Both the position numbers and the translations under genes were made by a program. Below the pieces are notes generated by a model. It had not been told where the DNA came from. It worked only from the letters and a program-made list of their open reading frames with translations, and searched no databases. From Romanomermis culicivorax (lineage: Eukaryota; Nematoda; Enoplea; Mermithida; Mermithidae), in contig CAWUHX010000009.1 in NCBI GenBank assembly GCA_963922205.1, positions 124,001 to 188,000 of the forward strand: a stretch of DNA of 64,000 nt, written 5' to 3'. Shown here piece after piece: positions 1,640-60,176 of this stretch. Every line of letters starts with the position of its first letter. Within the stretch, counting starts at the first letter, position 1.

Positions 1640-4575
1640 AACTTTGACGTTTTGTCGTCCAGGAAGTCAAATGTGGAAAGGTGCCGAATTTTATCCAGAA
1701 TTTGAGAATTTGAATTCCAAGAGCAAAAACTCATATTTCGAAATCAATCAAAATCCATTATATTCAATTCAATCACTTTTGACATTCCCCTTTCGCTTCC
1801 AAACAACATAGACCCTGATCCGAAAAAAGAAACTGGTTCGAACTTTGTAGAGAAGATCAAGTTAGCAGTATTAAGAACCTCAATGGTGCAGATATTCTGA
1901 CATCAAGAGGCGAACAAATTCCAATACAAATCCAATTTGTCTATTCAGGTGAGTGAAAAAATCCTTCAAGAGAAAATGGATGAAAATTCGGTCAGTAGGA
2001 TAATTAATATGTATTAATTTGTTATTTAACTACTATCTCTCCAACGACAGTCTCACATTTCACTGCAATTCCTTAATCCTACAAGTGATGTTGACCATGT
2101 TTCGAGTACTGAGAGTAGTGTTCATGATATGCTAGTCGTAGTTGAGCCAACTTGCATTGAGTTCAATCAGTGTACAGTGTTAAGACGTCCGAGTTTGAGT
2201 TGGCAATGAATAGAAACCTATAGTTCAGCAGAAACAGGTCATAACTGAAAACCAAAGCAGACCATCGAAAATAAGCGTATTTTGCATTGGGAAAGACCAA
2301 AATTCTGTCACGATCATGCAAAGTCAACTGAGAGAGAATATTTTATTTTCTCTGCCGTGTTGATTTTCATACCTAGAGTACAGAGGGAAGGGTAGAGTTA
2401 GGCGATCCACAAATTAAGCTGATATGCACTTTGAGGTTTTGTTATCGTAAGATAAATATTACATAAAAATGCCAAATGAAAAATACCAGAGAGACGTTCA
2501 ATTGAGGCATCCTCTCTGTTTCACCACTAATTTTGATCGTTTTTCGAGCTGGTAAATTGCAGCATCGAGTTCTGTTCGATCAAGTTGCTCACAAAATCTT
2601 TTCCTTCGATTGATTACGGATTGACTTTTTGTAAAATATTTCTTGTTGAACCTTTTAAAAACAGTAACCAGGTGGATTCTAGTCCGAAGGAAGTCATTCG
2701 TCAAGCTTCAAAAAATCAGGAAAATTTTGTTGATCCAGTTGACAGTCTGTCTGGATATCAGTTTTACGTAATTTCCGTTTATGTAAAAACTATGAAGGCT
2801 ACGAGCATAAAACTTTGCTTTTAAAACAGAGGCAAATAGGGGATTGTAATGCATGAATCCGCATTAAAAACATTCATCCATTCGAAAGTTATGAAAGTCA
2901 GAACTGGTTGCTTTTCTTGGCCCACCCTTTTTTGATTTTGTATTTTTATATTCATTTATATTTTTCTAGTTTTAAAAAATGTGAGGCTTTTAGGCGCACA
3001 CATCTGTGGAGGTTGTTGGGCAAGCGGCTTGATCTCAGCCAGAAAGCTGTTGGATTGGTTCGGATGGAATATAGCTCTTTGCGGTGGGCGGCAAGAAGCT
3101 CCATGCAGTTGGGGAATCAACCTAAAATTTCATAGAAAAACCCGAAAAAAGCCCAAAAATGTTCTTTTACTGTCAACGTTTTCCGAGTAGAGGGGAATTT
3201 GGGACATAACGGGACTTGGGTCGGTAATACAAGAAGTTGAGGAGGAATTTCCAACCCCACTCCCATGGAGGTCATATTTTGCAGCCAAAATATAGTATGT
3301 CGTTTCGTTACCAAAAATTCACGCAAAGCGCTATATAGTTGATCCCACGTCACACAAAGGAACAATTGACTTCTTTGTGCGACAACCAATCAGACTACCG
3401 GCAGCCATGACACTTGCCACGCCACAAGTAGTATATAAGAGATAGGTTGATAGAGACGTATCATTGAGATTTATATTTCGGAAAGTGGTGTCGTTTCGTT
3501 GTCCAGCGTTTGGACTCGGTGCCTTGTGCTAGTGATATGTTGCTTCATTCTATCATCATATCACAGCCCTTGACACTGGATCCCGATTATTTGGGCTTTC
3601 CTTCGATATTGCAACGACACACGGCGGTGTTCTGCAGTGCATGTGCGCTACGGTCATGCATTTTTCACTTTATGTGGCATCACCGGGTTCACATGCATTA
3701 TAGAACAGTCCGTTCTTTCGACGTTTTTCAGAAAAATTTTGGCCGCCACGAGCATAGGTGCCGTTGGCTAGGTATGTACCACGCACTACATTAGTTTATA
3801 TCACAGCCCTTCGGCGCTCATTTTCGTGGAGACTGATTTGCGGAAAAGCGAACATTTATGATGACTTCCATAGATGCGCCCTTCAGTCCTGGGTGTGTGC
3901 CTCTAGTCGTGTGTTATTAATGAAAATTTCATGACTAGAGACATGCTCAGCATTGTGGGACTCAAAACTTCTAACCAAGCTGCCCGACGGTATACTGTAG
4001 TCGCTAGCCTTGACGCAGGATTTCGGTAATTTGGCTCGTGGTCATTAGTGCCACCCACAATAGACCACGTTCCGCGACGCATGTGTGCTGAGGTCATGCA
4101 TTTTTCACAGAAGATTTCATGATCGGGTTCACATGCATCATGGAACTGTGGTCTTGTGCTTTCTGCGGTGCTTATTTCTTTAAATATAAGCTATTTTCCC
4201 AATTCGATTTCGCCTCCAGCTGTGGTTGTTTTCTGCTTGTTCGGTCGCTTCAGTTTTCCTTATGGTACGGATTTTTCCTTTTGTCCCGTTTTAAATACTA
4301 ATTTAAATATTAATATCACGTTTTTGAATATTAAATTTTGTCTCGTTTTAAAAATGAATTTTTCTACGTTTTTTTCTTCTGCGTCGTTTTAGAGTTTTTT
4401 TGCACTGTTTACTGCTCTCATTTTTTCTTTTCTCGTTTTTTATTTTCACTGCGTTTCTACTTTTCTCGATCACAGTGTGGATAGATAGTGTAGATCTTCT
4501 CTCTTCCTTTTTTATGTTTCTCTTTTTTTTAAAGATTCTTGTGTCTAGACAACATTTCAAAACTTTTTCTACAAA
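1640..4575 (+). repeat. dispersed repeat R, copy 1
   Basis: Collinear by eye with 36710-38970 (plus) and with 47640-44145 (minus strand). Landmarks include the block starting gacgttttgtc near 1645, the tail of the 85 bp inverted motif near 2860-2940 (ccgcattaaaaacattcatcc ... ttggcccaccct), a promoter near 3386-3440, and a T-rich 3' part to 4575. Relative to the other copies it lacks about 350 bp near 2430-2460. No long ORF is conserved between copies, so R is read as non-coding. It could be an LTR, a large non-autonomous DNA transposon or a composite. Confidence 0.7.
3386..3440 (+). promoter_or_regulatory. CCAAT box plus TATA box inside repeat R copy 1
   Basis: CCAATCAG at about 3387 is followed about 45 bp later by TATATAAGAG at about 3431, typical spacing for a pol II promoter. 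The same arrangement recurs in R copy 2 (38750-38800). The RNA would run into the segment after gtcgtttcgttgtcc. No coding region is recognised directly downstream in this copy. Confidence 0.5.
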
Positions 4576-5725: not shown

Positions 5726-7309
5726 AAATTCCATATTTTATTTCTTCTTTTTTTCCACGAAATATTCTTCGTATATTACGCATATTTCACAGTCGTCTTA
5801 CCGGAGTGGTTGGTTTACTGGGACATTTGACCAGCAGAACAGAATCGACTCAAAGCAACCGAACCAATGTTGTTTCAAATAAAGTGGCTTACTAGTCTAC
5901 AAAAGGATATTCATTTCATAAAGAGGCTAAGGCCATGGGAGATAAAGAAGCTGTGGATGCTACAAATTCAGTGGAGGCCAAAAATTTTGGGGAAACATTC
6001 GCTTGGGATCTTCCAAAACTGGGAATTTGATGCAACTCCGCCTGTAATGCCTTCTACAAGACCAGTGAGTACAAGTACTGATAAGATTCCAATCTAAGGC
6101 GCCAGATTTTCAACATGTTGCCCTTCATATTAGTTGAAGCAAAGCCTTACGATTCTATTGTATTGTATTGTAATGTATACTATAGTATACTTTCTATTGG
6201 CAATGTGAACTCAGAAGCGACAATTCATCCATCAATAACCTCAAGGGTTATCCTGGTAAAATGTCTTTGGTCAACGTTTAAGAAAAATTAAGGAGAAAAA
6301 CGATGGAGCTTTTCGAGCATGAAGTTAACACCTTCGGATCTCCCAGTGAAGGAATAGGACAAATTAGTTGATAAGTTAGATAAGAAAAAGCAGAACATTT
6401 TATGGAAGAGTGGAGTGCACTTATGGAGTCATAATAAATATATGGTCAACATTCTGAGTTAACACTTTCCACACCTTTATGCGTGATAACAAAGAAAAGA
6501 AGTTAAAGAAAGTATTTTGACTTTTATGTGGAATAAATGCTGCCACAATACACAGCATGTAGTACTATGCACAATATATCATTTTCGTATATGTATTATT
6601 AATTGGAACACATGGTCGAAACTATTAGAAACCCTTTCTTGAAGATGGCAGGTTGAACCTATCCTGGTACCCATAGACTTCTGAAAAGTATTAACAAATA
6701 GCCGATTATGTGAACTTTAAGACGAGAATTAGAAATTAGAAACAGTAGATGCAGAGAATCCATTAAAGTTGCTTTAACTCGCAAAAAAGCACAATCTCAT
6801 GACTGCAGTCATCAAGTCAGCTCTCGATAGATAACCCCACAATGAGGAACTACGAGTATGAGGCACTTTTATCTACAACAACCAATAATTTTACTGGCAG
6901 GCATGGCACTTGCCACGTCAAATACAGTTTATAGAAATCTATAGTTAAATGATTGCATTATTCCTGGAAATTTACTCCCCTTTGTTGAACGATGTGTCCT
7001 TTGGATATACTCTATTCCGATTATCAGACTGTTCGGCAGTGCATGATTGCTTTTGATATGGAACATTGCATCACCGGGTTCACATGCATCCTAGGACTTT
7101 TGATATGGAACATTGCATCACTGGGTTCACATACGTCCACATCAGGGGCGCAGGCTCTTATTTTCGCATGGCAGCTGTATTGAACGATACCCCGCCACCT
7201 GCTCCAATGGGGTCTGATGATGTTTTAAATGATTTATTGGTTAAGATTTGCCACAATTGAACCCTGCAATGAACAGCAGACCACTCGGAAGGCTTGGGTC
7301 CGAACCCTT
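5726..7309. other. AT-rich stretch, no gene; minor repeats
   Basis: No ORF here looks like protein. It holds a short TATTG microsatellite (about 6153-6170) with the palindromic tatactatagtata next to it. A decayed relative of the R promoter region lies at about 6878-6945 (caaccaat ... cttgccacgtcaa ... tttataga). About 7051-7137 holds two tandem copies of a 45 bp unit containing gggttcacat. Confidence 0.35.
7051..7137 (+). repeat. two-unit tandem repeat with gggttcacatgcat motif
   Basis: The unit (atggaacattgcatcaccgg, then gttcacatgcatc) occurs twice in a row. The core GGGTTCACATGCAT also occurs singly near 3683 and 4124, and a variant lies in reverse complement near 45045, all within repeat R sequence. 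Confidence 0.6.
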
Positions 7310-7570
7310 TTCGCTTGTGGTGTAAGCAACTGGTTGTGTCTCACTTCTTAAAGTTTCATGGCTTCAGACATACACAGCAGGGAAGGGTGTCAGGCCATCG
7401 ATAAAAAATTTGTTACAATATAGCCTGAGTATCAATTTCAAATTATTTTCCCTTCAAATAAGCCATTGATATATTGTGGTTATTTTTGTAGGGCTTATAT
7501 CACTGTCAACTTGTGGCATGAATTGTTTCTATCCATAATTTTCTATTGGATTTCGATCTGGGGTGGACTG
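7310..7570 (+). repeat. R-associated repeat block
   Basis: It contains gtttcatg ... gggtgtcaggcc ... gttacaatatagcctgag ... cttgtggcatgaattg. It matches the reverse complement of 43480-43750 over most of its length, and shorter parts of 36590-36700 and (reverse) 47690-47830, where it leads into repeat R. Confidence 0.7.
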
Positions 7571-7689
7571 TGAGCTTATTCTGTGTGGATTTGTGTGCAG
7601 TTTTCGGTGAATCCATAACACATCATCCACCAGGCCTACTTTGTGATCTCAAACATGTGGAAGCAGATATTTTTAATTTTTTTTGGTTG

Positions 7690-9114
7690 TGTCACATTAA
7701 ACGAAATAGGAGCCATGTCACATTAAGTGAATTGGTGATCAGTCACATTGATGGGAAAACCCATACCATATCCCATAGGAAATACAGCCATGACACTGCA
7801 AGTGACATGCTGTGACCCCGTTGGCTGGCTCGCTAATGTATCTGTTTCGGGAACCTAACCCAGCTGGTACTACCACAGGAAAAACCTATAGTGTACCTCG
7901 GCCTTGTCCTAGGGTTCAGCTGTAGAATAATGGACAACGCAGCCGGGTCAGGGGTGGCAATCCCTAGTCCTCATTCACTGAGAATGAGGGACAGTGACCT
8001 TCATGGAATGGCTTACTGTAGCGGACCCGATTGTCAACCTAAATCCCCTAATTGGCCCTGACCTTAGGGGTCCAGGGGCTGTCTCGACTGAGGGTACTCT
8101 CAAGGGAAAACTGGCTTAAGGAGGATTCCCACAAATATACCCTCAACAATAATAACCCCTGAGAAGACTCACTAAATCCTCTTCTCAAAGTACTCGGCGC
8201 TGGGCGACAGGTTCAAGGGTCAAATGTGGGTCCTGCGGAGGGCGGGGAATGGGTTCGATAATCCGAAAGCGATTCAGTGTGGACTGTTGGTGAGTGCGAG
8301 TCGGTGGGCGACAGTGTCAAAACGTTCCTCGGGGAGGCGATGGGGGTTCTGGATCAACAGGGGACAGGGTAAACTCCTAAGGTTGGGTTACAGTAACTGG
8401 CAACGCAAGGGAGAGGGAAGACAAATATGTAAATTTATTATAGAGGCCACGGAGGCAGGTACAATATGTAAATTTATAATAAAACGATGCAGGCAAATGC
8501 AGGAACGCAGGCTGTGAAATGCAAAAGACGATTAGGCCCAAAAATGAGTGCAAAATTAACAAAACAAGCCATTTTAAAGGGCCCCGTAATCTACAGTATG
8601 CCTTGGGCGGAGCTAAGACACACCCAAGATAACTTCTGCAGTGGAAATCGCTGTAGAAGATGCCTATGGTCACATAGACATTTTCCAGTTCACTATGTTA
8701 AGCATTGGGGCGAGTTTTCACTCTCCATGCTCAACATAGGAACGTCATCTAGTGAGAATTTCCAACTAGGTGTTTCAGGTTGCGAAACGTCGCTAGTTTT
8801 TACTAATAAGAGGTGCATGTTGTGCTCCAATTGCAGCGATAAGCTCGGAGAGCTTATCTATAACAGAAATTGTGACTAGCGGGTTGCATACAGTAGTCTA
8901 CGTGCGCAACGGAAAATAACAAATTGTGATGGAAATGAAAGTGCGACAAATAAACAGAAACAAAACATAAAAAGTACAAACAGAAATTGCATGTATAAAT
9001 TGTAAAAATGGAACCTAAAATTAAGGTAAGTTACTGCAAAACAAAACGTGGTGAAAAACATAAGGGAAAAATATGATGTGAATCACGTGACACTGGATGA
9101 AATTCCTCGGCACA
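7690..9114 (-). repeat. element C candidate 3' LTR
   Basis: Alignable by eye along its whole length to 21143-22556, with roughly one difference every five bases and small indels. It shares gtgacatgctgtgacc, gtagaataatggacaa, ctgagaagact and aaacgtcgctagtttttact. A further partial copy of the far end lies at 26442-26794. The divergence suggests an old insertion, matching the decay of the genes between the copies. Confidence 0.5.
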
Positions 9115-9609
9115 TGAAACGGCGGTCCATCGAAAAAGGGCGTCCTCATCCTTGTCTTGTTGAGGTTTTATGCAGCATGTCGGTTGGGGTTGATCGTCCA
9201 GGTAAAGGTGACGGCGGGCCGTCAATAGTCCAGTGGTTTTTCCGCGCGTTTTGGCTTGTGGAGTTGTGTCAATGATGCGTGGAGTTGCTGAGGCCAATTG
9301 ATCAGTGTGGTTGGTTATGTGTGGAGTTGCTGATGCCAATTGATCCATTTGGTAATGCATGGAGTTGCCATTTGTCGACTGATTTGTGAGATCTGTAACG
9401 AGACTAAAAGAGAAATTTTAGGTGCAAGATGTAGGCTATCGCAGGGATGCGCCTGTACTATGGAGCAATACCATAGTTTAGATGCATTGATTGCTGCTCA
9501 TTCTCTTCTTTACACTGTTGTTCCAGCATGGAGCAGGAGGGGCACGGCGGTCCTTCGAAAAAGGACAACCTCTATCGTTAGTCGACTAAAGAAGAGAAGA
9601 GCTACTTGA
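9115..9609. other. spacer between integrase end and LTR of element C
   Basis: No gene. It holds a tandem motif, tgtggagttgctgaggccaa, repeated with changes at about 9278-9375, and a 24 bp direct repeat (acggcggtcc, then tcgaaaaagg) at about 9118 and 9545. No polypurine tract in element orientation was found beside 9114. Confidence 0.35.
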
Positions 9610-11123
9610 TTACAGGTCTGAGACCTCTGCATCAAGATGTGGGTCAAGGAGATCTTGTGTAAAATCTCCACTTGTTGATGGAATCAACAACGGTGCAGTC
9701 TCGACAACCTGTGAAGTGGAAGGTATCTCCTCTGCTTCAGTAGGGTGATCAGGTGACACGTAGCATCTAAGCTGATTGACATGCACAGTATCTTCTTGAT
9801 CTGCCTCAAGCGGAATGGTGACATTGGGATATGCCATATTTGTTAAAAGTAGGGTCCATCGTAAATGAGCAGCAAGTTAGGCGTAAGGCCACGTTTGCCC
9901 GTGGTGCGCAGTTTGAGCACCTGATCACCAACTTTGTATGAGACATCTTGTGCCATGCGATCGTAAGACCGAGCATAAGCCGCCTGTGATCTCTCAATTC
10001 GGCTCTGGATCAAGGTCAAGGCATTTGTAAAACGTCCTTTGACCTCCATATCATATGTGGAAATATCAATCATATGGGCTGGAGGGTTGAATGAGAGCGC
10101 CGCATCAACAGGTAGCATGGGCGTACAACCATACATGAGTTCAAAGTGGGAATATCCTGTGGACTCATTCATGCTAATGTTGACGGGGAACACAGAATAC
10201 GGCAGGTGTTCATCCCAATCAGTATGACCTTGGTGGACATACATACGTAGCTGTGTAGCTAGCGTTTGATTAGCTCTTCACACTTCTCCGTTTGTCATCG
10301 GGTGATAAGCAGTGGAGTGGATTTTCTTAGTCAAACAAATGACAGTGATTTCAGTCATCAGTTTGGACGTGAAATCAGTGCCATGATCAAACTGGAGAAT
10401 CTCTGGTGCCCCATGTCTGCAGACAATTTGTGTAACAAAAAGGCATGCTATGGTTTGCGCAGTAATGTCCGGAGTAGCAAAAGCTTCAACCCATTTGGTA
10501 AAATAGTCGATAAAGACTACAATAAAACTGTTCCCACTTTCACTAGTGGTCATTGGTCCCATACAGTCAACACCTACTCAATGAAACGGCCCCGTAATGG
10601 TGATCGGTTTCAGAGCTGCTCCGGTCTTCTGTCTCGTGGGTTTATTTCTCTGGCAAAGGTCAAACTGCTGACAAAAGAATTTTACATCTGCTCTGGGGGA
10701 AGGCCAGTGGTACCTGCGGGCTATAAGCCTCATGGTACGTTTAGCACCAAAGTGTCCAGCGAGAATGTCATTATGGTGAGCCTCAATAATGGTAGTAACC
10801 ATTGATCGGGGAATGACAATCTTGTTGGACTTGCCTGTCCACTTCTGGAGGATGTTATCCAACAGGTGGTAGCCATTAACATCATTCTGATCACTGTAGG
10901 GGTTTAGTGACCTAAGAATGGAGGCTAGTTCCAGATCCTCAAATTGAGCTGCAAGAAGGTCATGGTGCTGCGCATCCTGTGACATCTCAGCATAAGACTC
11001 TGACCTCACCAGGTACTGCGCACCATCCGTGGTCATTTGAGATGATCTCGCCAGGCGCTGCGCACCATCGGAGATCATTTGAGATGATCTCGCAAAGTGC
11101 TGAGCACCATCAGAGATCATCAT
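9610..11123 (-). pseudogene. pol: element C integrase
   Basis: Ty3/gypsy integrase would insert the cDNA. The 11123-10578 segment holds the HHCC zinc domain (HHNDILAGHFG, then the Cys pair in FDLCQRNK). The 10562-10278 segment starts the catalytic core with VGVDCMGP (first Asp) and LQFDHGTDF (second Asp). The segment stops at TGA (10278-10280), exactly where the Glu of the usual VER motif is expected, and RANQTL follows. The 10244-9843 segment continues to a GPY/F-type end (YDGPYF), and the last part (9837-9610, shifted frame) carries NVTI ... VHVNQLRCYV. Another stop lies at 10563-10565. The protein start is in the linker with tandem repeats at about 11000-11115. Inactive: the catalytic Glu codon is lost and frames are broken. 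Confidence 0.85.
11000..11115 (-). repeat. in-frame tandem repeat in RNase H-integrase linker
   Basis: About three copies of a 14-residue unit of the form SDGAQHLARSSQMI, encoded by a roughly 42 bp DNA unit. It sits between RNase H and the integrase zinc domain, a linker where length variation is tolerated. Confidence 0.7.
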
Positions 11124-11234
11124 AATCTCTCCCTCAGGTCTGTATAGGGGAGTATTGTCGATACTCTCCCGGGCAAGGGAATTAGGACCAGGCAGGCGTG
11201 ATAATGTGTCAGCATTACGATTAGACCAACCTTT

Positions 11235-11702
11235 TCACGGCCGAATTGTCAGTTTGAATTCAAGGAGCGCAAGGCCCCACCGAGCTATCCGGGCTGAAGG
11301 GTTAGGTTTCTCCAACACAGCCTTAACAGTGGTATGATCAGTCTGAAAGACCACCTCATGTTGAAAGAGGTAAGGCCAAAAGTTCTTGACAAAATGGACA
11401 ACAGCGAGAGTCTCTAACTCCCTAATAGTGTAGTTCTTCTCGGCTGCTGTTAACCCTCCACTGGCGTATGGGACAGGATGGTCGTATCCATCATCATCCA
11501 ACTGGCTCAGAACCGCTCATATCCCTGAAATACTTGCATCAGTTTGAAGGATGAAGGATTTCGTAAAGTCCGGATGGCACAGAATAGGAGGGTTTGTCAC
11601 AGCCTTTGGAGTCCATCGAACGCTGCTTGCTGAAGCTTTGACCACAGGAAGGTAACTTCCTTCCATAGGAGCTTGGTCAGTGGCTCGCTGAGCCGGGTGC
11701 AA
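11235..11702 (-). pseudogene. pol: element C RNase H
   Basis: RNase H removes the RNA strand during reverse transcription. In this frame the first catalytic Asp is in FILQTDAS, the Glu in TIRELETLA and the next Asp in VVFQTDHTTV, so all three expected acidic residues are visible. One stop separates 11702-11517 from 11501-11235. The frame differs from that of the RT upstream, so a frameshift lies between about 11600 and 11700. It continues the pol order of element C. Confidence 0.85.
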
Positions 11703-12898
11703 CCAGGGATGAAACGCCTATAATAAGACACAAGACCAAGAAAAGACTTGATGTCTTTGGCGTTTTGTGGAATGGGTAGATCCTGGACGGCAGCCAATTT
11801 GACTTTATCTGGTTCTAGGCCGTTCTGTGAGATATGGTAGCCTAGATATTCTACCTCAGAGTGCGAAAACTCGCACTTGCTCAGTCTGAGCTTCATTCCA
11901 CCCTGATGGAGATTTATAAACACATCCGTCAGTCGCTCAAGCATCTGAGTGTGGGAGTTCCCGAACACCAAGATGTCATCGAGATAGGTCAATGCTGTAC
12001 GCTACTGCAATCCCGTGAGAAGCAGGTCCATGAGACGTTGAAACTTTCCAGGGGCGTTGCAGAGATCAAAAGGCAGATAGTTGAACTCATAGAGCCCAAT
12101 ATACGTGTTGAACGCCGTTTTCTCCTTGTCTGCCTTGGCAATAGGTATAGACCAGTAGGCATTAGCCTGATCAAGGGTAGTAAAGTATTTCATACCCTTG
12201 AGTGTGTCGAGGATGTCATCAATTCGTGGGAGAGGATAGACATCCTTTTTCATGACCTCCTTAAGACCACGAAAATCAACACACATCTGGTGTGACATAT
12301 TTTTCTTGCGCACTAGGACGGTATTCGTAGCCCAGGGGGAAGTACTAGGCTGGATAATACCTTTCTCCTGGAGCACTCTGACTTCTTGTATGATGAGGTC
12401 CTTTTCCTTGGGCACAGTGCGGTAAGGGAAATGGCGGACTGGGCGAGCGTCACCCGTGCTGATCTCATGGTGCATGAGGTCAGTGGAACCTGTGTCCTTC
12501 TCATCAATAGCATAGAGGTCAGTGAATGCGACCAGTAGGTCGAGTAATGCTGTCTTGTTCTGTTAGGAAATATCAGGAAATATTACAGCATTTGCTTTGA
12601 CCCATTTCCGGTCAAGAATGGTATCAGACTTGACGGCCAATCCCCGTGAGGAATCAGTGTGCATCTGGACATGACCAATGGTCGTGTGTGGGTGGACAAT
12701 CACTGAGCGTGTACTCAGGTTAACTACCTGTAGGGTTATGCGACCATGAGTCACAGTGCTCATAGTACCAGCAAAATGTACGCTGCGTTGTTGTCCCAAG
12801 AGGTTCTTAGGGAAGAAAGCTACCTCGGGCACATTCGCATATAGTGAAGGTACAGTTGCAGTGAATTGCGTCAGGGAGCAAGGTTCAAGGACAATCAA
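11597..12898 (-). pseudogene. pol: element C reverse transcriptase
   Basis: Reverse transcriptase of Ty3/gypsy type. Visible in order: the pre-RT linker (12898-12563), the entry motif HEISTGDARPVRHFPYR, then VDFRGLKEV, YPLPRIDDIL, FTTLDQANAYW, LPFDLCNAPGKFQRLMD, and after a stop near 12000 the catalytic YLDDILVFG, with the thumb region KCEFSHSEVEYLGYHIS and FLGLVSYYRRFIP. Stops at 12899-12901, 12563-12565 and around 12000 interrupt one otherwise constant frame, shared with the glycoprotein upstream. Catalytic Asp pair intact; the copy cannot make a full protein. Confidence 0.9.
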
Positions 12899-13804
12899 CT
12901 ACTGCAAGGGTAGTGCACCACGAGCAGAGGGGGGATTGTGAATGAGGCCCTCACATGGAACCTGAAGCTCCTTGAACTGAAGAAAGGATTTCTCCCAGTT
13001 CAGGCTGACGCAATTGAACCATCCAAGGAAGTTCGTCCCCAAGACTAATTCAGCTGAACAACTCTCTTGAATTTGGACCTGAATCCGTTCAGAGACATCA
13101 GCTACCATCACCTTGACATAGGCAGCGCCTAGCAGTAGAATCGGAGACCCATTGGCTGCTATGGGGTTAGCCATAGTCTCTGTGAGTACCAAGTCGGGTA
13201 ACTGGACCACCAACTTGTGATCCAGGAGTGAGAAAACTGCTCCTGTATCAATCAGACCCTTGGCTGCCACCCAATTGTTCAGAAGAACTCTGATAGGAGG
13301 GGTCCTTATTCCAGTCGGGTGGAAGGCTGACACTACATGACCTGGATCAGGTGCAGAGTCACCAAAACTTGACTCGGGCGGGTCAGTTTGCTTCGGTATC
13401 AGGAAACCGGTGCGTCGGAGTAACCTCACCAGAGCATAACCAGCCGATAATTCTGGGTTGGTCCGTGGAGTGGGATGAACCTGAACAGCAAGTACATGAT
13501 CCGATCGCTCTCCTGAGCTCTGAGTAGCTCTTAGGGATTCGATCTCTTTGTCAGAGAGTGGGGACACCTCTAGTACAGAGGATGCAGGCGCATCTGAATC
13601 ACTAGGCTTGCGGAACCAGCCCTTCTCTAGTGTAACCTGAGAATTTCTAGGCGGGGGTCGAGGGCAACCTGACACTGACCTGGCCATTAAATGACGACTG
13701 GCCCGTCTAGAAGAGGTCTGACTACCTCTGGTCGACCCACGTGATGAGGCAACAGAGGAAGCCCACAAGGGTGGCTGAGAAATGGATGAAGTCCTTGATC
13801 TTGA
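12899..13804 (-). pseudogene. pol: element C second retropepsin (DTGA) and preceding basic linker
   Basis: The frame directly after the TGA at 13805-13807 begins with an Arg/Ser-rich stretch that continues the Arg/Ser run before the stop. It then carries a Ser/Pro-rich linker and a retropepsin: the active-site LIDTGAVFS (Asp at 13247-13249), a central strand region (PIAANGSPILLLGA) and the LVLGTNFLG motif. This is the usual protease position, just before RT, so it is probably the processing protease of pol. It ends at a stop at 12899-12901, after which the same frame continues into the RT region. Confidence 0.8.
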
Positions 13805-16207
13805 TCAAGACCGGGACCTGTCCGAGGCCCTTGATAGTGAACGTGTGTTCTCCCACCAGGGTTGGACCTGATCAATCTCAGTGGCTGTCAAGAGAAGTGG
13901 CAGTTCTACTGCATTCAACCGACAGACATGCTGTTGGTAATCAAACATAATATTCTGGAATTTTTCTAGAAAGTCCAACCCCAGAATCAGATCAACCGGT
14001 GCCCAGAAAGGAAATGTAGTCTTACACACATGGAGATGTATATCCCCTCTTGTGTGCAGCTGACGGGTTCCAGGCAACATGATCTCATACCGTCCCGATA
14101 GGAGAGTATGGATAGCTTTCCCATTGATACTCATTAATGGGATAAAGTCATGATGTTGCTGGAAGGCCATCACCACCTTCGGACTTTCTTTAATCAAGGC
14201 CTTCTGAAGGCGTTGACTAATGATGGTCCATGGACAACCAGTGTCAAGGAAAGCTGGAGTTTCCTTGGCATCAACCAGTACGGCGAAACACGGAGTGATT
14301 CTGTCTAACTGAGTCGGCACATCCTTCTGCACGTAATGAAAACCGACCCAAGGTTGAACTTTCCGAAAAAGGTTCAATGGAGAGTATTGGCTAACAAACT
14401 GGACCTGTCTTTTCCGCAGGTGGTAGCCCAGATAATAGAATAACCCAAGGTAGATGAGATATCCTGTACCAGCCAGCACTGCCAGGGTGATGAGGGTGTT
14501 AAAGATCGACTGCACCCGTCCACTCAGAAGAGACTGTAAGCCCTGTATGAGATTGTGCTGTTGACCAGTAATCACATGGTTCGCTGCCAGACCAACACCT
14601 TCCAGAGAGGCCTTGATGTCAGTCCCTACCCCTGCAACTGCCTGATAGAGAGAATCTGGTTGTAGGGATAGACCAGTGGTAAAGTTTACCAACCAGTTTA
14701 AGACCGCTTCAATTTGCTCAGTCTTGTAAACATATTGTTTGAAGAAAGCAAAACTTGAAGGGGTCATCGCAAACTGATCGTGAAAGAGCGCAGGAGCATC
14801 AAAGTGAGTGACGTTGAAATGCTGTTTCCAGAAAAGTTCAAGCCGAATGTGGCTCACATGGACTGTGCCAGACTCAGATAACCAGGCTGAGCGATTTTGG
14901 AAAATCCCCATAAAGTGATGGTCGCACAGCACTCTTGGACTAAATTTAATGGGATCTGGGCCACCGGGGGTGGAAAAGTAAATGGTACCACCAACCTGTA
15001 CAGGTAGATACTTGTAACAGGTGTCCCCCACCCAGTACGAGTGGTAGACATACGTAGCCTTGACCTTTTGACACAGCCATATTGTCAGTGCTTCACCCGT
15101 GAATTCGGCCGTCAGGTCATTCCTTTGCAGAAATGCCCGGGCTCCTAGTGTATGGTCAAAACGAAGCAACTGCCAAGTCAGATCAAGGTAGCATTGAGCG
15201 TGGGAGCAAAGTTCAAGCCACATGAACCAAAAATTGTTAATTTCCGATTCTTTGATCTGCTGAGCCAGGTAGTTCAGTTTGGCATTGGCCGGGTCAGGAT
15301 GCGAGTCCTTTGCCAATCCAAACAACCTTTGGGTCATATTAAATCTTCCGTGGATGCGTAGAAGAAGACCCTGATCCGTCCCTACTGTGTTGAACCGGAG
15401 GTGGGGACACAACCGAAAGACGCAAGAGTTTCCCGGGATCTTCAGGGCAACTTACAAATCATCAATGATGACATGGTTCCCTGACACAGACGCAGTGTAA
15501 TTGCCCTGAGGAGGATAATGACACTGTGCTGTAAAGTTTGTTGCAGGCCAAACGATTACCCCCTCTAGAGTAGTGCATTGACCTGCAGTGGGACTGCATC
15601 CACCTACATAACCTAAGGTACTTAGAGCTGTAGTGCCATCCCATGAAACGACCTGTCCCTCCTCGATGAAGAGGTTAGTCACCGTCTTGCAAACGTCACT
15701 GCAGCACTATGAGTACATCACTTCCAGCATTTGGTTAGTGCTATAAAAGCCAGGGCGTATTTCCACAAGCTTTTGTAAACCAAACACCTTCCTGCGATGT
15801 GCTCAGGTACAAGCCACTGGCGCTAGATGCTGAGTGGTAATGACGTCCTCAGTAATGCCCCTAGATCCAAAAAAACCATTGTTGGTGCACACCTTAGGGT
15901 TTCCCAAAGTGCATGTCCACGCTAAAGTAGTGATTGGATCAGAACTAGGAACATACACTGTAACATTCATGTGTCGTGGACTCCATGAGGATTTTGGTGG
16001 CTTGCATTCTACTTTTTGAGGTAGCTCAAGTGGATGACCGCTTCTTGAAAGACCACAAAATTGGTACTGAGTAGCATGTATTGCAGAGCTCATCCCTAAG
16101 AACAGTAGTGTCACAAAGGCCCAATTTATTATGTACAAGCTATTTACAAATGGTGCTCCCAAATATACACCAATTATGTACTGTGTCAGCCCGTCGGGCG
16201 GGTTCAT
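13805..16207 (-). pseudogene. env: element C chuvirus-like envelope glycoprotein with C-terminal retropepsin-like domain
   Basis: The ORF opens with a signal-anchor-like stretch (hydrophobic run ending GMSSAIHA) and a Cys-rich ectodomain. The pattern resembles glycoproteins of Jingchuvirales, which are known to have been captured by LTR elements: paired Cys with GFFGSRG, then a short Cys-x-Cys block near 15590 followed by EGVIVW, then TCYKYLPV with a downstream FSTPG and Cys. A transmembrane helix lies at about residues 303-329 of the last 535-codon segment. The same segment then runs into a retropepsin fold: AFLDTGCPW (Asp at 14243-14245) and LILGLDFL. In-frame stops at 15803-15805, 15707-15709 and 15452-15454 break it; it ends at TGA 13805-13807. 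The start ATG overlaps the ORF X stop. Family assignment is by pattern only. Such a protein would mediate membrane fusion; this copy is defunct. Confidence 0.7.
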
Positions 16208-17032
16208 TCTTCATCGCTATCCGAGGATATCGGCTCCTCGCCGGGGAAGTCCATGACCAGACACCCGCATGGGTGGACTTTGCGAAGAACGCCAATCTTT
16301 GGGGACCACCGGGCGGTTGCTGTCAGGAATGGCAACGCCTGGATGATGCTGATGTCGTTGTTGATGGCGCGCAACGTTTCTACAAAGGGGTTGGCAACCT
16401 TGGTGGGCGATCTGGCGACGGCCACTGGTTGCTGCTGGACAATCGCAGCCAGCATTTGGGCTCCTGTCGTCGTTGACGGTAAGGCGGCAACAACTGCTGT
16501 GGGCTGCTTGTTGCAGCTCGCCTGTTCCACAGCCCGGCGGACGGCTTCCACTGCCGGCGACGACAGTTCACTGTCCAACAGGATCTTGTCCACTGGGGTG
16601 GCGCGAATAGTTCCATCCGTGATAAACTCGAGCGCTCGTCGAGCAACTTCAGGCACCAATATCTGCAGCGCCACTGGGGCCGAGAGCACCACGTCGGCGG
16701 CTGTAAGCGCCTCAACCTCGAACGGCTCGTTGAGTAGTGCCCATGGGAGGTGCGGATACTTTTTGGCCAAATCGGTTGACCAAATGGTCCGCATCGCATT
16801 GGTGACGGATGAGGAATCTGTAAATGAGATCCGCCAGGTGTTCAGCCAGAACTTCATCATCCAGATCAAACAGATCTGGGTGAGGAAGACCTTCGGTAGC
16901 CCCTATGGCATTATTTTGCTGTGGGGTGGTGGATATTGATCCCTGTCCCGTGAGAAGGTGGATTAGCATATGGCTGAAAATTCCCACTTGCCCCCTAAGG
17001 AGAGTAACCAGTGCTATGAAAGTTAGTCTCAC
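16204..17032 (-). pseudogene. element C ORF X between gag and glycoprotein
   Basis: Two overlapping open frames (17032-16712, then 16869-16204) look like one coding region split by a frameshift: the first gives a helical acidic stretch ([20 protein letters not shown]), the second 221 codons rich in Ala and Val and ending [12 protein letters not shown] do not recognise the product. It lies between the gag zinc knuckles and the glycoprotein, where a Ty3/gypsy element normally goes straight into protease. Its TGA stop overlaps the glycoprotein ATG by four bases (ATGA), a tight coupling typical of neighbouring ORFs on one mRNA. It may be a gag C-terminal extension or a separate accessory protein. 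Confidence 0.5.
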
Positions 17033-17057: not shown

Positions 17058-18340
17058 GCAGGCCGTGGCCCTGTGCACTCCTATTTGTCGGCAATGCGGA
17101 CAGGGTCTGTCGCATCAGTCAGTCTGGTGCGCCCTCGTTCGACAAAAACAGCAAGAGCCGGCGCCAGTGGCTGTGGTGTTGCTAGGGCTGGCGCTGTCGG
17201 GATGTCGGGCCTGGCATCTAGAATCATTGTGGGTGCAGCATCCATGGTAGGAGCACATCTGTAAATGGGCCCCTGATGGGCAATCACCAGCATTTTGGAC
17301 GGGCACCAATGGCGTCGTTGACGGCATCGGATTTCTCAAACGTGGCGCCGTTTGCTGAGCCGTAAGTCGCACAACGTGAGCCGTAAGCCGGGCCATCTCT
17401 GATTGTAGGCGTCCAATCTCATGGGACACCTACAGACGTTGAGCGGTGCCCCTTTGATTGGACATTGACCTGAGGTTGTCGGCGGTCTTTTGTTCTGAAG
17501 AGAAAACAGCATTAGATGGGGCAGTATACCTAATCTCATCCCGAAAAATCTGTGATTCTGCGTAACAAGCTGGTTTGAGAGTCTCTTCAAGAGTTGTAAA
17601 CTCCCTGAACTCAATACTATCTCAGAGGACTGGTCTCAACCCTCACAGGAAGATAGGTTTTATAATCGAATCTCTAACGTCAGTCTGGAGATCCAGATAA
17701 GCCACCCTGGACAGTCTCTTAAGGTGCTCAAGGTAGACTATCGCAGACTCAGTCGGTTTCTGCAGACCATCTTGGATCAACTGCTGATGCAGATCTGAGT
17801 CATGCCCTACCAGAAAGTCTTTCCTTAGAAAAGCGGTGAACTCTTCGTAGTGGGTAGGCTGTGGAGTACCACTGCTAAAGTCCCCGTAGGATGCAAGAGC
17901 AGGACCTGTTAGGCAAGACTCCAGAAACGGGATTTTATATGCATGATCCATTTCTGTTACCCGTTGAAGTGTAAAGAAACGGGTCAAGTGAGATATAAAA
18001 TCCATTATAGACTCATCAAAAGCGCCCGAAAAGGCAGGAGGGGCCATGAAGCTGGACACAGAAGGGTGCCTTCTGCCATTCATAGCCTACAGCTTTTGGT
18101 TGAGCGGCCCAAGGGCATTCTCAAATGCAGCTTGGACCTTGTTCTCAATCTATGAAGGTAGATCAACTTCTGACTCCATAGTTGAGGGTTCGTCTTCCTG
18201 TAAGGTGGCTAAGACAGATAATCGTGCCTGTGAAGCTATTCGATCAAACTGAATAGAGAGAGGCTCACTGGTCTTTTTAAAACTAGAACTGAGACGGCAG
18301 GAACGTCTAGGTGTCTCTATTTTGTGAAAATGAGGTAAGT
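17058..18340 (-). pseudogene. gag: element C gag (capsid plus three zinc knuckles)
   Basis: One frame is open from just after a stop near 18340 down to about 17058, with stops at about 18150, 18087, 17643, near 17430 and 17115-17117. The capsid part is recognisable (FSGAFDESIMDFISHLTRFF ... DLHQQLIQDGLQKPTESAI). A probable N-terminus extends upstream of the ATG at 18083 (another ATG is at 18179). Three zinc knuckles follow: CX2HX4HX4C at 17255-17214, CX2CX4HX4C at 17153-17112 (a stop replaces one inner residue), and CX2CX5HX4C at 17102-17058. Gag would form the particle and bind RNA. Non-functional here. Confidence 0.8.
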
Positions 18341-21142: not shown

Positions 21143-22556
21143 TGTCACATTAAACTAAATTGGTGCCATGTCACATTAAATGAGAACTGGACAGTCACAT
21201 TGATTGGAAAACCCATGCCATATTGATACAAATACGGCCCTGTCACTGTGAGTGACATGCTGTGACCCTGTTGGGTGGCTCGTTTGTATTCATTTCAGGA
21301 ACCTAACCTAGCTGGTACTGGCTATAGGAGACCCTATAGAGTGCCTTAGTACTGTCCTTGGGTTCTGCTGTAGAATAATGGACAATGCCCCCAGGTCAGG
21401 GATGGCAATCCCAAGTCCCATTCAGTGAGAATGAAGGACAAGGCCATTTGTGGAATGGCCTACTGTAGGAGACCCAATTGTATACCTAAATTCCCTTTTT
21501 GGCCCTAACCCCAGAGGTACGAGGGCTGCTGTAACTGAGGGAATTCTCAAGGGAAGACCCACTTAGGAAAGGGTTCCCACAAATACACCCTCAACAACAA
21601 TAATCCCCTGAGAAGACTTACCTAGTCTTTTCCTCAACTACGACTCGGTGCGGGGCGATGGGTTCACAGGTTCACAGATCCTGGGAGGACAGAAAGGGGG
21701 GTGATGGCGGTCCTGTTCCATTTTGGCATTGGGTGTACTGTAAAACGGGTCAGCGAGCGACACAAGAGGTCCACTAATGGAGCGATGGGCAAGTACTAGG
21801 CGAGAGGGGTGACGTATAACTCCTATGCAGAAATGCAGGCGGCAAACACAGTGAGGGACATGAAGACATATGCAAATTTATTCCAAAATGTATTCGACGG
21901 ATGCAGTGTATGTGAATTAATAATAAAACAGTCAATGGATGCAAGATGCAAGAGCTAAACCCAAGAGGAAAACGATGTAAGCTCAAAAATGAGTACAAAA
22001 CTAATGAAACAGGTCCTTTTAAAGGGCCTCGTAGACCTACAGTATGCCCTGGGCAGAGCTAACAACACCCAAACTAAGTTCTGCAGTGGAAATCACTGCA
22101 GAAGATGCCTATGGTCACATAGACATTTTCCAGTTCGAATATGTTAAGCATTGTGGCCAGTTTCACTCTCCATGCTAATCATATGAACATCTTTTAGAGA
22201 GAATCTCCAAAGTAGTCATTTCACATTGCAAAACGTCGCTAGTTTTTACTGATAAGAGGTGCACCTAATGCTCTAATTATGGCCATGAGCTCATAGAGCT
22301 TATCTTGGCGGAAATTCTAACTAGAGGTTTACATACCCTAGTCTACATGCCCAATGGCACAATAACAAAAGGTAATAGAAATGAAACACAAAAATGAAAC
22401 AGCAAGGAAACACAAAAATGCAGACAATAATGCATGTAAAATATAATGAACAAAACGCAAAAATAAGAGTAAGTAACTGTTAATCGAAAATTGGCCAAAA
22501 ACATAAAGTACCGGCATGATGTCAATCATGTGACGTTGGGCAAAATTGACCCACAC
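21143..22556 (-). repeat. element C candidate 5' LTR
   Basis: Diverged direct copy of 7690-9114. It begins TGTCACATTAAAC with CCA immediately to its left. Its last 350 bp (22204-22556) are also part of the much younger 1.8 kb duplication found again at 26442. Confidence 0.5.
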
Positions 22557-24010
22557 ATAACGCTATGTACTATAAATCCCATACCAACAACCTTACAAAT
22601 GGCAATGCATGGGCAGGACTTGTACTTGAATTTGGATTTCAACAAAGTTCCAATTTCCACTCCTGACATATTCTGGATTCATAATGCGAACAACGGAATG
22701 CCTGTTGAAATTTTCGAGCCCATTTTTTACCACTTGACTTCTGAATCTAGCACTTGCAAGATCCACATCTGGCTTCAAAATTAAAAATCGAAATAACTGT
22801 GTTCCCTGCCAAATAGAATGTCTTGAAGAACATAGACATTTTCTTGCGATCAATCGCTACTGGTGCATTCATGAGCATTGATGTTTCTATTATTTCAAAC
22901 TGTTTACATTAAGCGTTCATGAATCTTATGCCCCCACATTGACTCTGCTTGGAGTCTGTTTTTATTCTTCTGACGGTTCTTGCTCATCACTGAATCAAAT
23001 GTGAAATGTAGCATTAACCTTTCATTAAACATTGCAAAAATGTTTTGAAATACATAAATCAATTGCTACAAATGATCGTTTGAAAATTCCATAAATTGAT
23101 TGCTACAAATAATTGTCGGAAAACTATAACAATGGGAAAAAGTTGCAAAAAACCAATGAGGCCGTTTTATCTCAATTGGTGAGTAATCGAAACTTTGAGC
23201 ATCATCACCAAAGGCAGTGTGGGCAGTTGTGCAGGATTCGAAATGGTCGGAGGAAGTTGTTGGTCAAAATTCAAATTATGGCATGGCATTTGAGGCAGCA
23301 TTAGGTGAACTTGATTGCAAATTTTGGTGTTGCTGATCAGGTGGCATGCGTCTCACCTGTGGCATTTTCTTCCACAATTGGTAGAATCCTTGTTGATAGC
23401 ATTGGGTGCAAGAGTGGGGTGGTCGTCAGCAGAGGTTGGATGCAGCGCAACAGCGTGGAAATAAGGCTTGCAAACCAAGCGGCTCACCAATGTTGTATTC
23501 CTAAATATGGTCCGGGCTTTCAGATAGTGGTAGACAGTAGTTGGGTCCAGGGATCGTTCTTAATGCATGTGTTTCCAGCACCCATGCTTACCTGATAAAC
23601 TAATCTCTTAAAGTACTTAAACCCCACAATAATTTAACCAAAATTAGAAAACCTTCAGTTTCCTAATTTGAATTTGAAAAAGTAAAAGCCAAAAGAGGAG
23701 AGATCCCTCTTGATAATTTTACCTACTAAAATAACACACTTACGTACAAAACCAATGCATTTGCAAGAATAATGGAAGATTCCCCAGTCCTGGGAAAATA
23801 TGAAGAAACACATGGGGATTCACACTAGTAAACGACAATATTAATAACAATAATAATATGAGAGCACCCACCACATGCAACCGAGACTGAACTACAGTAA
23901 GACGCCCATCGATGGTCCACATAGCTCACTTCACTTCAAGCCTGCATGCGTCTTTGAATAATCAACAAACTTTTCGAAACTCTTACAAATCATTGGAAAC
24001 ACACTACAAC
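22204..24010 (+). repeat. 1.8 kb direct repeat, left copy
   Basis: It matches 26442-28250. The first about 1.2 kb appears identical by eye; from about 23440 onward substitutions appear every 15-30 bases. It contains the tail of a C-type LTR, then AT-rich DNA with no gene. The ORFs found here (for example 22491-22784) are short, identical in both copies simply because the DNA is, and do not resemble known proteins. A 38 bp internal direct duplication (attgctacaaat) lies at about 23055-23120. Confidence 0.85.
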
Positions 24011-28659: not shown

Positions 28660-29497
28660 TGTCAGAGGGTCAATTCCTCTGACCTTTGGTCCTCTAATTA
28701 CTATATTTTTATTCTTTAAAGTTTCTTTGTTGTTAAAGTGTTTCCATTTATTATTAAGTAAACAAACCGATAAAATGGTTTGTGTCACACATTTCTGGCC
28801 CTAAAACTAATAAATGGTTAGCAAAAGTTTTGCATACAACATGCAAGTTGATGTTAGGCAGGCCGCCGTGCAGATTATTCATTATTGAAATATATTATTC
28901 AATTATTATTACGCGTTTATCGTTTTTCGTTGGGTCGGACGTTTTTACATACACGGTGGCCAGGAAAGTTGCGTGGGCGTTACCGCCAATTACGGTCATT
29001 TGTATTTTCGTTTTGACATCGCGTTGCCATTACAGTGGAGGGCCGAACACGGGCTAAGGATTTACGACGACCCTTTTGATTAGGAAGTTTAGTGAGTTGT
29101 TATTGGAGACTGGTAGATCAGTCTCACCTTTCTCGGAGGAGTTTGAGTTTCAGTTTCAGTACTTTAGAAGGCGAAGCGGCTTAGGCCCTGTGTCAGATAT
29201 CCTAGCACCTCTGAGGCGCTGTGCGCAGAGGTGAAACAAAAGGATCCATGAGCTAGGGAGGAAGTAGGCGTTGGTGTTTTCGTGTTTAGATTCTTACACT
29301 TGTATTCTAGCAATTCTCACATTTGTATTTGCTGCACTTCTCGTTTTTACTCGTAATAAATATCTTCGTACATTCAGTCTCAGCTAGGTACCATAAGAGT
29401 ATCATTAGTACCGGGTTAGCATCAGGGGCCCTACCAGATTGGATCTCCCAAGAACCGCAGCTAGGTAGCCGAGGGCATACAAGCACCCAATACAACA
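28660..29497 (+). repeat. element A 5' LTR
   Basis: 838 bp, TG...CA. It opens with the hairpin GTCAGAGG-gtcaatt-CCTCTGAC and contains an AATAAA polyadenylation signal at about 29356. It is related to, but distinct from, the LTRs of element B. Confidence 0.9.
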
Positions 29498-50935: not shown

Positions 50936-50992
50936 TCAGGGCAGACAGACCAACCATCGACTAGTGGTGTTAATAGTGTACAGCAAGAACCG

Positions 50993-60145: not shown

Positions 60146-60159
60146 CCTTTGCCTTCGTA

Positions 60160-60176
60160 GCTGTACAAGTCACCAA
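60160..60176 (-). other. element B primer binding site
   Basis: On the minus strand TTGGTGACTTGTACAGC directly follows the 5' LTR CA. It matches the element A site with a one-base difference in length. The tRNA was not identified. Confidence 0.7.

What the first reader, a model, noticed from the sequence alone, without database searches (positions are those of the whole stretch)
13805..16207. Chuvirus-like glycoprotein sits between gag and pol
In LTR elements with captured envelopes the glycoprotein normally lies after integrase. Here a protein with signal-like start, Cys-rich ectodomain and transmembrane helix precedes protease and RT. It shares one reading frame with them from 16207 to about 11600; only scattered stops interrupt it. 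Either an envelope-pol polyprotein existed, or the stop at 13805 is the true end of the glycoprotein and the shared frame is chance (one in three).
Basis: partly seen in the sequence, partly recalled or inferred. Interest (0 to 1): 0.87.

Follow-up and report, generated by a model that had tools for sequence, protein, structure and literature searches.

The report
Worm retroelement with envelope inside gag-pol
In a nematode that parasitises mosquitoes, an abundant and recently active retrovirus-like element carries a virus-type envelope protein in the middle of its gag-pol protein, not at the end, and a small intron appears to decide whether only the capsid protein or the whole chain is made.

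Summary
The finding is real, and larger than described. The window copy is a broken, mosaic member of a family of 16.3-kb Ty3/Gypsy-type elements in a mermithid nematode (Romanomermis culicivorax by protein matches). A Monjiviricetes-type fusion glycoprotein lies between Gag and Pol. The stop at 13805 is absent in sisters (0 of 19). Capsid, nucleocapsid, glycoprotein, protease, RT, RNase H and integrase form one open frame of 3014-3018 codons (15 of 79 scored places); a second subfamily has 3090-3116 codons (70 of 150). Gag's tail (X) overlaps the Gag-Env-Pol frame in another frame and is reached by an 86-nt GT-AG intron; two genomic copies lack exactly those bases. Best model: spliced RNA makes Gag-X; unspliced RNA makes Gag-Env-PR1-PR2-RT-RH-IN, the envelope entering the membrane by an internal signal. 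I found no precedent for this order. RNA and protein evidence is lacking; origin is shown only to Monjiviricetes, not chuviruses.

The parts
21143..22547 (-). 5' LTR-like repeat of the window copy (different LTR subfamily; 5' end of a mosaic)
   Evidence: 74% identical to 7690-9104; 74-76% to the LTR of sister C85, 79-81% to another LTR beside it; identity to C85 drops from 85% to 74% at about 20149
17643..18083 (-). Gag capsid (CA) part
   Evidence: PF03732 E 0.0032, below cut-off, here; sister Gag matches PF19259 Ty3_capsid E 3.3e-7, above cut-off; dN/dS 0.16 against C85
17118..17429 (-). Gag nucleocapsid part (Cys/His knuckle-like by eye)
   Evidence: Same frame as CA and Env in sisters; matched by UniRef models P0041, P0058
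16824..16827 (-). Scar of a loss of about 380 bases (C85 7260-7639) that includes the intron's 5' splice site
16204..16817 (-). X: Gag tail exon, read in the -1 frame relative to Gag/Env of sisters, ends in TGA; 3' splice site TTTACAG|ATTCC retained
   Evidence: 59 R. culicivorax homologues; codon-position tests; X-frame dN/dS 0.34; intron boundaries
15806..16207 (-). Glycoprotein, N-terminal piece with hydrophobic signal-like segment
   Evidence: dN/dS 0.13
15455..15706 (-). Glycoprotein, middle piece (six Cys)
   Evidence: dN/dS 0.13
14423..15451 (-). Glycoprotein, C-terminal piece with Monjiviricetes fusion domain and membrane helix (about 14494-14423)
   Evidence: PF24664 E 5.1e-10; helix; dN/dS 0.14 for the first 169 codons
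13862..14326 (-). PR1: retropepsin-like domain after the membrane helix (LDTG ... LILGLDFL)
   Evidence: both motifs in 19 of 19 sisters and in one copy of the second subfamily; dN/dS 0.10 and, between subfamilies, 0.07
13805..13807 (-). In-frame stop of this copy
   Evidence: 0 of 19 sisters have a stop here
13361..13804 (-). Linker between PR1 and PR2
   Evidence: same frame in sisters; dN/dS 0.26
12980..13339 (-). PR2: the usual Pol retropepsin
   Evidence: PF13975 E 0.0056, below cut-off, here, 8.5e-7, above cut-off, in a sister; dN/dS 0.33 and, between subfamilies, 0.05
11600..12562 (-). Reverse transcriptase (two pieces)
   Evidence: PF00078; nearest solved structure is Ty3 RT, E 7e-27
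11238..11516 (-). RNase H
   Evidence: PF17917 E 4.5e-23
9613..11234 (-). Integrase (H2C2 piece, further pieces, C-terminus)
   Evidence: PF17921 E 5.5e-19 for the first piece; order and frame in sisters
7690..9117 (-). 3' LTR
   Evidence: 79% to the LTR of C85, 90% to another LTR beside that copy

Best explanation
The element is a Ty3/Gypsy-type LTR retroelement that took up a Monjiviricetes-type fusion glycoprotein, not after integrase but inside its gag-pol reading frame. SHOWN from sequence: the order LTR-leader-CA-NC-[X overlap]-Env-PR1-linker-PR2-RT-RH-IN-LTR; one open frame from CA to IN in young copies; an 86-nt GT-AG intron whose removal joins Gag to X in a different frame with its own stop; purifying selection on each part in the stated frame. 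INFERRED: spliced RNA makes Gag-X, the bulk structural protein, as BARE and copia make Gag from spliced RNA. Unspliced RNA is read straight through as Gag-Env-PR1-PR2-RT-RH-IN. The hydrophobic segment before Env acts as an internal signal, so Gag stays in the cytosol, the Env ectodomain goes to the lumen, and the two proteases and Pol hang on the cytosolic side of Env's membrane helix. Signal peptidase and PR1/PR2 then cut the chain. Splicing thus sets the Gag to Env-Pol ratio, and every enzyme molecule is first made tied to an envelope protein.
For: Order and frame: 19 of 19 sister loci; eight copies read on both sides, with CA, NC, Env, PR1, PR2, RT, RH, IN in order, in one uninterrupted frame in 6 of 8. 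Uninterrupted 3014-3018-codon frames in 15 of 79 scored places, 3090-3116 in 70 of 150 listed places of a second subfamily. Real insertions: LTR pairs of 1.43 kb, 96.95-99.86% identical in seven copies; 4-base target duplications in 6 of 7 by eye. Constraint: dN/dS 0.08-0.19 for CA, Env pieces, PR1, RT, RH, IN pieces; between subfamilies 0.10 for two Env pieces, 0.07 PR1, 0.05 PR2. Frame switch: most changes at Gag-frame third positions before the intron, even in the intron, at X third positions in X, and again at Gag-frame third positions in Env. Intron: GT and acceptor in 19 of 19 sisters; two copies lack exactly the 86 nt; GT kept in 9 of 10 and acceptor in 10 of 10 divergent loci. Read-through: with the X protein held fixed, codon shuffles give 5.5 stops in the Gag/Env frame, zero in 0 of 5,000, observed 0; the reverse test gives 19 of 5,000 and a glycoprotein control shows no depletion; second subfamily mean 2.2, 172 of 5,000 at the observed 0. 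No in-frame start codon in the last 100 bases before the signal segment in 17 of 19 sisters.
Against: No RNA or protein data. Ten divergent intron-bearing loci carry 2-7 stops in the projected Gag/Env frame over X against 0-3 in the X frame (and 6-12 in the third frame), several at shared sites. Many of these sites are CGA in C85, one transition from TGA, so decay can explain them, but so could a closed frame in older lineages. The third frame is also somewhat poor in stops in C85 (287 of 5,000 shuffles at or below the observed 3), so base composition may add to the effect. The one copy of the second subfamily that I read has an early stop in X, and its Gag was not read. The read-through product carries a 226-residue Arg/Pro/Ser-rich spacer without selection on its residues (dN/dS 0.93). 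PR1 stays below Pfam cut-offs and its AlphaFold model is poor (pLDDT 47).
Confidence: 0.68

Rival explanations
1. Env-Pol is made from its own spliced RNA: a Gag start-codon exon is joined to a 3' splice site upstream of Env, as retroviruses make Env, and the continuous frame through Gag and X is not what is translated.
For: No usable start codon just before Env in most sisters (17 of 19), so a borrowed Gag start would be needed; nematode Cer1 makes an alternative-frame protein by splicing (PMC10309623, passages).
Against: It leaves unexplained why the Gag/Env frame is stop-free over intron and X in two subfamilies. A crude scan of 6900-8300 of one copy gave two acceptor-like sites, 7211 and 7645, none close before Env; the scan is insensitive, since it missed a candidate near 7307.
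Confidence: 0.22
2. Reinitiation: the ribosome ends X at TGA and restarts at the overlapping ATG (ATGA) to make Env, as the window copy suggests at 16207.
For: ATGA overlap present in the window and in 19 of 19 sisters.
Against: In the usual sister copy that ATG opens a six-codon frame, not Env; Env-frame starts in the last 100 bases occur only in the window, in L008 (followed by stops) and in L017.
Confidence: 0.02
3. The stop at 13805 is the true end of the glycoprotein gene and the frame shared with pol is chance.
For: The stop exists in the window copy.
Against: 0 of 19 sisters have it; uninterrupted frames in dozens of copies.
Confidence: 0.01
4. Two unrelated elements are nested or spliced, so the order is an accident of this locus.
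For: The window copy is a mosaic near 20149 and has lost about 380 bases near 16825.
Against: Neither break lies between Env and Pol; the glycoprotein follows X at 19 of 19 and 12 of 12 other fetched loci, and copies have their own target duplications.
Confidence: 0.01
5. PR1 is a retropepsin relic without enzyme activity, kept as a structural cytosolic tail of Env.
For: Weak profile scores (PF13975 18.4 bits against a cut-off of 28.2); PR2 already gives the element a standard protease.
Against: LDTG and LILGLDFL in 19 of 19 sisters and in the second-subfamily copy; dN/dS 0.07 between subfamilies.
Confidence: 0.2

Closest known systems
Atlas virus and other hookworm belpaoviruses (PMC9094657, passages read)
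   Same: Nematode LTR element; RNA-virus glycoprotein taken up; Env part of one long polyprotein (2,828 residues)
   Different: BEL/Pao, order Gag-Pol-Env, phlebovirus-like class II glycoprotein at the C-terminus, coding sequence reported without introns
Anakin, mosquito Pao elements with chuvirus glycoprotein (PMC7642597, passages read)
   Same: Glycoprotein of a Monjiviricetes virus captured by an LTR element
   Different: Pao not Gypsy; a glycoprotein inside the gag-pol frame is not described in the passages read. A later survey by the same group reports no clear capture by Gypsy (PMC10084718, passages)
BARE1 of barley (PMC3735527, passages read)
   Same: One gag-pol frame; a small alternative intron (104 nt) whose removal causes a frame change and a stop, giving Gag only
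   Different: Copia superfamily, plant, no Env mentioned; the stop follows three residues after Gag, whereas here a conserved exon of about 200 codons follows
Cer1 of C. elegans (PMC10309623, passages read)
   Same: Nematode LTR element without a stop between gag and pol; spliced product with an exon in another frame
   Different: The extra protein CERV is a nuclear export factor whose C-terminal half is encoded after pol; no Env between Gag and Pol described
Ty3 (4OL8, 7Q5B)
   Same: Closest solved RT; capsid family
   Different: No Env, no PR1, frameshift between gag and pol (recalled)

Membership tests
Ty3/Gypsy (Metaviridae) | RT closest to Ty3 | tested here: met
   4ol8 E 7e-27 and 7q5b 3.1e-26 rank first, best non-Ty3 hit 8r0s 1.8e-16
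Ty3/Gypsy (Metaviridae) | Pol order PR-RT-RH-IN | tested here: met
   8 of 8 copies read on both sides, with PR1 as an addition
Ty3/Gypsy (Metaviridae) | Ty3-type capsid | tested here: met
   PF19259 E 3.3e-7, 30.3 bits over cut-off 29.1, in one sister
Ty3/Gypsy (Metaviridae) | LTRs with TG..CA ends and 4-6-base target duplications | tested here: met
   TGTCAC...GTGACA; 4-base duplications in 6 of 7 copies by eye
Ty3/Gypsy (Metaviridae) | GPY/F module in integrase | not tested
   -
Monjiviricetes fusion glycoprotein | Profile match above the curated cut-off | tested here: met
   PF24664 38.4 bits (window) and 61.1 bits (sister) over 27; only the middle of the profile is matched
Monjiviricetes fusion glycoprotein | Fold of the ectodomain | tested here: inconclusive
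   AlphaFold without relatives, pLDDT 29.5
Chuvirus (Jingchuvirales) glycoprotein | Nearest relatives are Jingchuvirales rather than other Monjiviricetes | not testable with these tools
   No viral homologue was reached; the second Pfam hit is BDV_G, below cut-off
Anakin (Pao-chuvirus hybrid) | Pao-type RT | tested here: not met
   RT is Ty3-type
Retrovirus-like gag-pol-env organisation | Env downstream of integrase | tested here: not met
   Env lies between X and PR1 in 19 of 19 loci and after NC in 8 of 8 copies; in C85 the frame ends after integrase about 460 bases before the 3' LTR
Retropepsin (PR1) | Active-site D-T/S-G and second hydrophobic-Gly motif | tested here: met
   19 of 19 sisters and one second-subfamily copy
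Retropepsin (PR1) | Retropepsin fold | tested here: inconclusive
   hhalign to PR2-4 E 2.6e-4 over 117 columns, probability 42%; Ddi1 E 0.0047; Foldseek ranks 1-24 all Ddi1 proteases, but best E 3.4e-3 on a pLDDT-47 model whose alignment included proteases
BARE-like splice control of Gag | Small intron whose removal changes frame and ends the product after Gag | tested here: met
   Intron-less genomic copies L038, L039 with Gag-X in one 805-codon frame
BARE-like splice control of Gag | Both RNAs present | not testable with these tools
   No RNA data

The most novel reading that the evidence does not exclude
A new genome plan for reverse-transcribing elements: a topogenic Gag-signal-Env-Pol polyprotein, laid out like the capsid-signal-glycoprotein chain of alpha- and flaviviruses, in which Pol is delivered to the particle as the cytosolic tail of the envelope protein, a first, membrane-tethered protease (PR1) is built into that tail, and a retained intron with two overlapping reading frames sets the Gag to Env-Pol ratio.
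Probability: 0.4. Interest if true: 0.92.

Novelty: new variant of a known kind. Interest (0 to 1): 0.86.

Why it matters
Capture of a viral glycoprotein by a retrotransposon is proposed as the way retroviruses arose (Atlas paper, passage), and the cases I read about put Env after Pol. Here Env sits inside the polyprotein, so capsid, envelope and enzymes would be made as one membrane-threaded chain. That makes the question of how an element packages Pol and balances Gag against Env and Pol directly testable, in an abundant family with dozens of intact frames. It also adds a second, selected retropepsin, and a natural case of a retained intron with overlapping frames under selection.

Tried and rejected
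Searching for relatives of the 548-aa ORF in 5.8 billion proteins gave nothing at E 1e-3 (only proteins of about 301-959 aa are candidates); a 290-aa piece found four fragments. Viral contigs gave no confirmed relative. Whole-ORF and PR1 AlphaFold models were too poor to stand on. LTR divergence in the window (26%) first suggested great age; that conflicts with the few stops and is better explained by a mosaic with two LTR subfamilies. The ATGA overlap at 16207 first looked like reinitiation; sisters spoke against it. A -1 frameshift into X was considered: the motif scan printed no slippery heptamer in 7400-7900 of C85, and the intron explains the junction. A second, in-frame 255-nt intron in Gag is only a candidate; it is kept in both copies that lack the 86 nt. 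Rfam and tRNA scans of the window were empty. Paper searches that returned nothing useful for the order.
Full report
WHAT WAS CHECKED. The minus-strand frame from 16207 to about 11600 is unusually open: 8 stops counting the last one, against 84 and 84 in the other two minus frames and 71-101 in the plus frames. Its pieces match a Monjiviricetes fusion glycoprotein (PF24664, E 5.1e-10, above cut-off), RT, RNase H and integrase, and, below cut-off, gag-type aspartyl proteases. The glycoprotein has a hydrophobic start, cysteines, N-glycosylation motifs and a membrane helix near residue 320 of the 548-aa ORF. The match is colinear: residue 307 of the sister stretch aligns to profile position 311. 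The RT is Ty3-type and the sister Gag matches the Ty3 capsid profile.

HOST AND FAMILY. The piece upstream of the glycoprotein (X) has 59 relatives, all named Romanomermis culicivorax in the source, a mermithid nematode that parasitises mosquito larvae (recalled). One of them, P0015, matches the window's own genome at 98% over residues 50-244. The window lies in an assembly of 359 Mb. Public gene models already join the parts: X with the glycoprotein start (P0012), with the glycoprotein stem (P0061, P0062), with PR1 (P0060), glycoprotein with PR1 (P0063), X with integrase (P0058) and with the 3' end (P0042).

SISTER COPIES. A genome search with the 548-aa ORF scored 79 places out of 3,567 first-look candidates, one of them the window itself; the others are 86-88% identical. 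15 of the 79 lie in uninterrupted frames of 3014-3018 codons (counted by eye twice). In the 19 fetched sister loci the order X, glycoprotein, PR1, linker is the same in 19 of 19 (linker partial in L005 and L020, X in two frames in L018); full PR2 follows in 17, is partial in L020 and absent in L005. The site of the window's stop at 13805 is a stop in 0 of 19. Eight copies were read on both sides; all have CA, NC, Env, PR1, PR2, RT, RH and IN in order. Six have one uninterrupted frame; C123 has a stop in Env and C347 a frame break near the start of Env. Seven copies have LTR pairs of 1.43 kb at 96.95-99.86% identity (the match of the eighth, C347, runs beyond the LTR) and 4-base target duplications in 6 of 7, read by eye; C201 shows none. 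Element length is 16,273-16,301 bases in six of the seven and 14,547 in C431. So the family was recently active.

A SECOND SUBFAMILY. An RT search scored 150 of 6,897 candidates and showed a group at 88% RT identity, several in frames of 3092-3116 codons. A 2-kb stretch of one such copy (C93; L049) has X at 48% and glycoprotein pieces at 73-89% identity, with no stop in the Env frame across the intron, the X overlap and Env; its X frame has an early stop. A search with its glycoprotein piece listed 150 places at 97-100%, 70 of them in frames of 3090-3116 codons. A further 1.6-kb stretch of the same copy (L050) shows PR1, linker and PR2 in one frame. Gag of this subfamily was not read; that the frame includes it is inferred from its length.

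TWO PROTEASES. After the membrane helix lies a domain with LDTG and LILGLDFL (PR1); the usual Pol protease (PR2) starts about 175 residues after PR1 ends. PR1 scores weakly by family profiles but aligns over 117 columns with PR2 and two other Gypsy proteases of the window (hhalign E 2.6e-4, probability 42%) and with Ddi1 retropepsins (E 0.0047). A poor AlphaFold model (pLDDT 47, made with those proteases in the alignment) has only Ddi1 proteases in its first 24 Foldseek places, none below E 0.001. Selection on PR1 is as strong as on RT: dN/dS 0.10 between window and C85 (RT pieces 0.11 and 0.19), and 0.07 between subfamilies at dS 1.1. PR2 gives 0.33 and 0.05. Both PR1 motifs are present in 19 of 19 sisters.

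THE OVERLAPPING GAG TAIL AND ITS INTRON. In sisters CA, NC, Env and Pol share one frame, but X is conserved in the -1 frame. Substitutions between one sister and divergent loci fall mostly at third positions of the Gag frame before the intron, are even over the intron, fall at third positions of X within X, and return to the Gag frame in Env (5-10 loci per region). The switch is an 86-nt interval, AG|GTAAAC in 17 of 19 sisters (GG|GTAAAC in L002, AG|GTAGAC in L017), with CTTACAG|ATTCC at its end; GT and acceptor are present in 19 of 19. Splicing it gives the peptide NL-I-DSS; the pattern NLxDSS is found in 6 of 63 gene models. Two genomic copies, L038 and L039, lack exactly these 86 bases, are 96.7% identical to each other, and have Gag and X in one 805-codon frame. 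They look like reverse-transcribed spliced RNA, the best evidence here that splicing happens. The X query gave 175 matches; the best 12 were fetched, and 12 of 12, including divergent ones, carry the glycoprotein right after X.

IS THE UNSPLICED FRAME READ? Over X the Gag/Env frame shows no selection on residues (dN/dS 0.93), yet it is stop-free in 12 of 19 sisters. In C85, holding the X protein fixed and permuting its synonymous codons gives on average 5.5 stops in that frame and never zero in 5,000 trials; the third frame is mildly poor in stops too (287 of 5,000). The reverse test gives 19 of 5,000 for the X frame and 3,552 of 5,000 for the third frame, and a glycoprotein control shows no depletion. 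In the second subfamily the test gives 172 of 5,000. Against this, ten divergent intron-bearing loci show 2-7 stops in the projected frame, many at CGA codons. These loci are decayed (0-3 stops in X as well), so the point stays open for older lineages. Usual sister copies have no start codon just before the signal segment (17 of 19), so Env needs either read-through from Gag or a borrowed start.

HOW IT MOST LIKELY WORKS. Spliced RNA yields Gag-X. Unspliced RNA yields Gag-Env-PR1-PR2-RT-RH-IN. The segment before Env threads the ectodomain into the lumen, leaving Gag and Pol in the cytosol on either side of the membrane passage; host signal peptidase and the two retropepsins release the parts. 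Only the sequence facts are shown; translation, topology and cleavage are inferred. The resemblance to capsid-signal-glycoprotein polyproteins of alpha- and flaviviruses is recalled, not tested.

THE WINDOW COPY. It is a broken mosaic: 84-85% to sister C85 from 20149 inward, 74-76% outward to the 5' LTR, a 3' LTR closer to another LTR subfamily (90%), a loss of about 380 bases that includes the 5' splice site, and about 1.1 kb of C85's leader missing.

COMPARISON. Passages of the mosquito Anakin papers, the Atlas virus paper, BARE, Cer1, the sORF2 preprint and parts 1-2 of the Troyka paper were read. None of these passages describes Env between Gag and Pol, a Gypsy element with a captured Jingchuvirales-type glycoprotein, or a second retropepsin behind Env. 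The paper library lacks most subscription journals, so absence there is weak. The family is filed as a new variant of envelope-bearing Ty3/Gypsy elements.

Noticed in passing
window 22204-24010 and 26442-28250: Direct repeat of 1.8 kb at 97% beside the 5' LTR-like end; it overlaps the LTR-like repeat, so it may be a tandem duplication.
   Followed up: no
window 55177-55958, 60177-60958 and 56645-60169 (-): A second Gypsy-type element with 99% identical 782-base repeats around a 1,174-aa frame; a third Gypsy-type element with protease-, RT- and integrase-like frames at about 50900-54850 (+) (domains by eye).
   Followed up: no
window 28660-29495 and 34898-35732: Direct repeats of 836 bases at 97% around a 604-aa frame at 30403-32217; possible further LTR element.
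   Followed up: no
L021 1833-5900: A leader of 4 kb between 5' LTR and Gag in young copy C85, with plus-strand frames of 92-138 codons; function unknown.
   Followed up: no
L021 7053-7307: Candidate second intron of 255 bases (in frame) within Gag, skipped by some public gene models; retained in the two copies that lack the 86-nt intron.
   Followed up: partly
L022 8010-9447: Another LTR 1.3 kb beyond one young copy, 90% identical to the window's 3' LTR but 80% to that copy's own LTR: several LTR subfamilies exist.
   Followed up: partly
window 13722-13870 (-): A short overlapping frame just after PR1 encodes a strongly hydrophobic stretch; probably chance, not compared in sisters.
   Followed up: no
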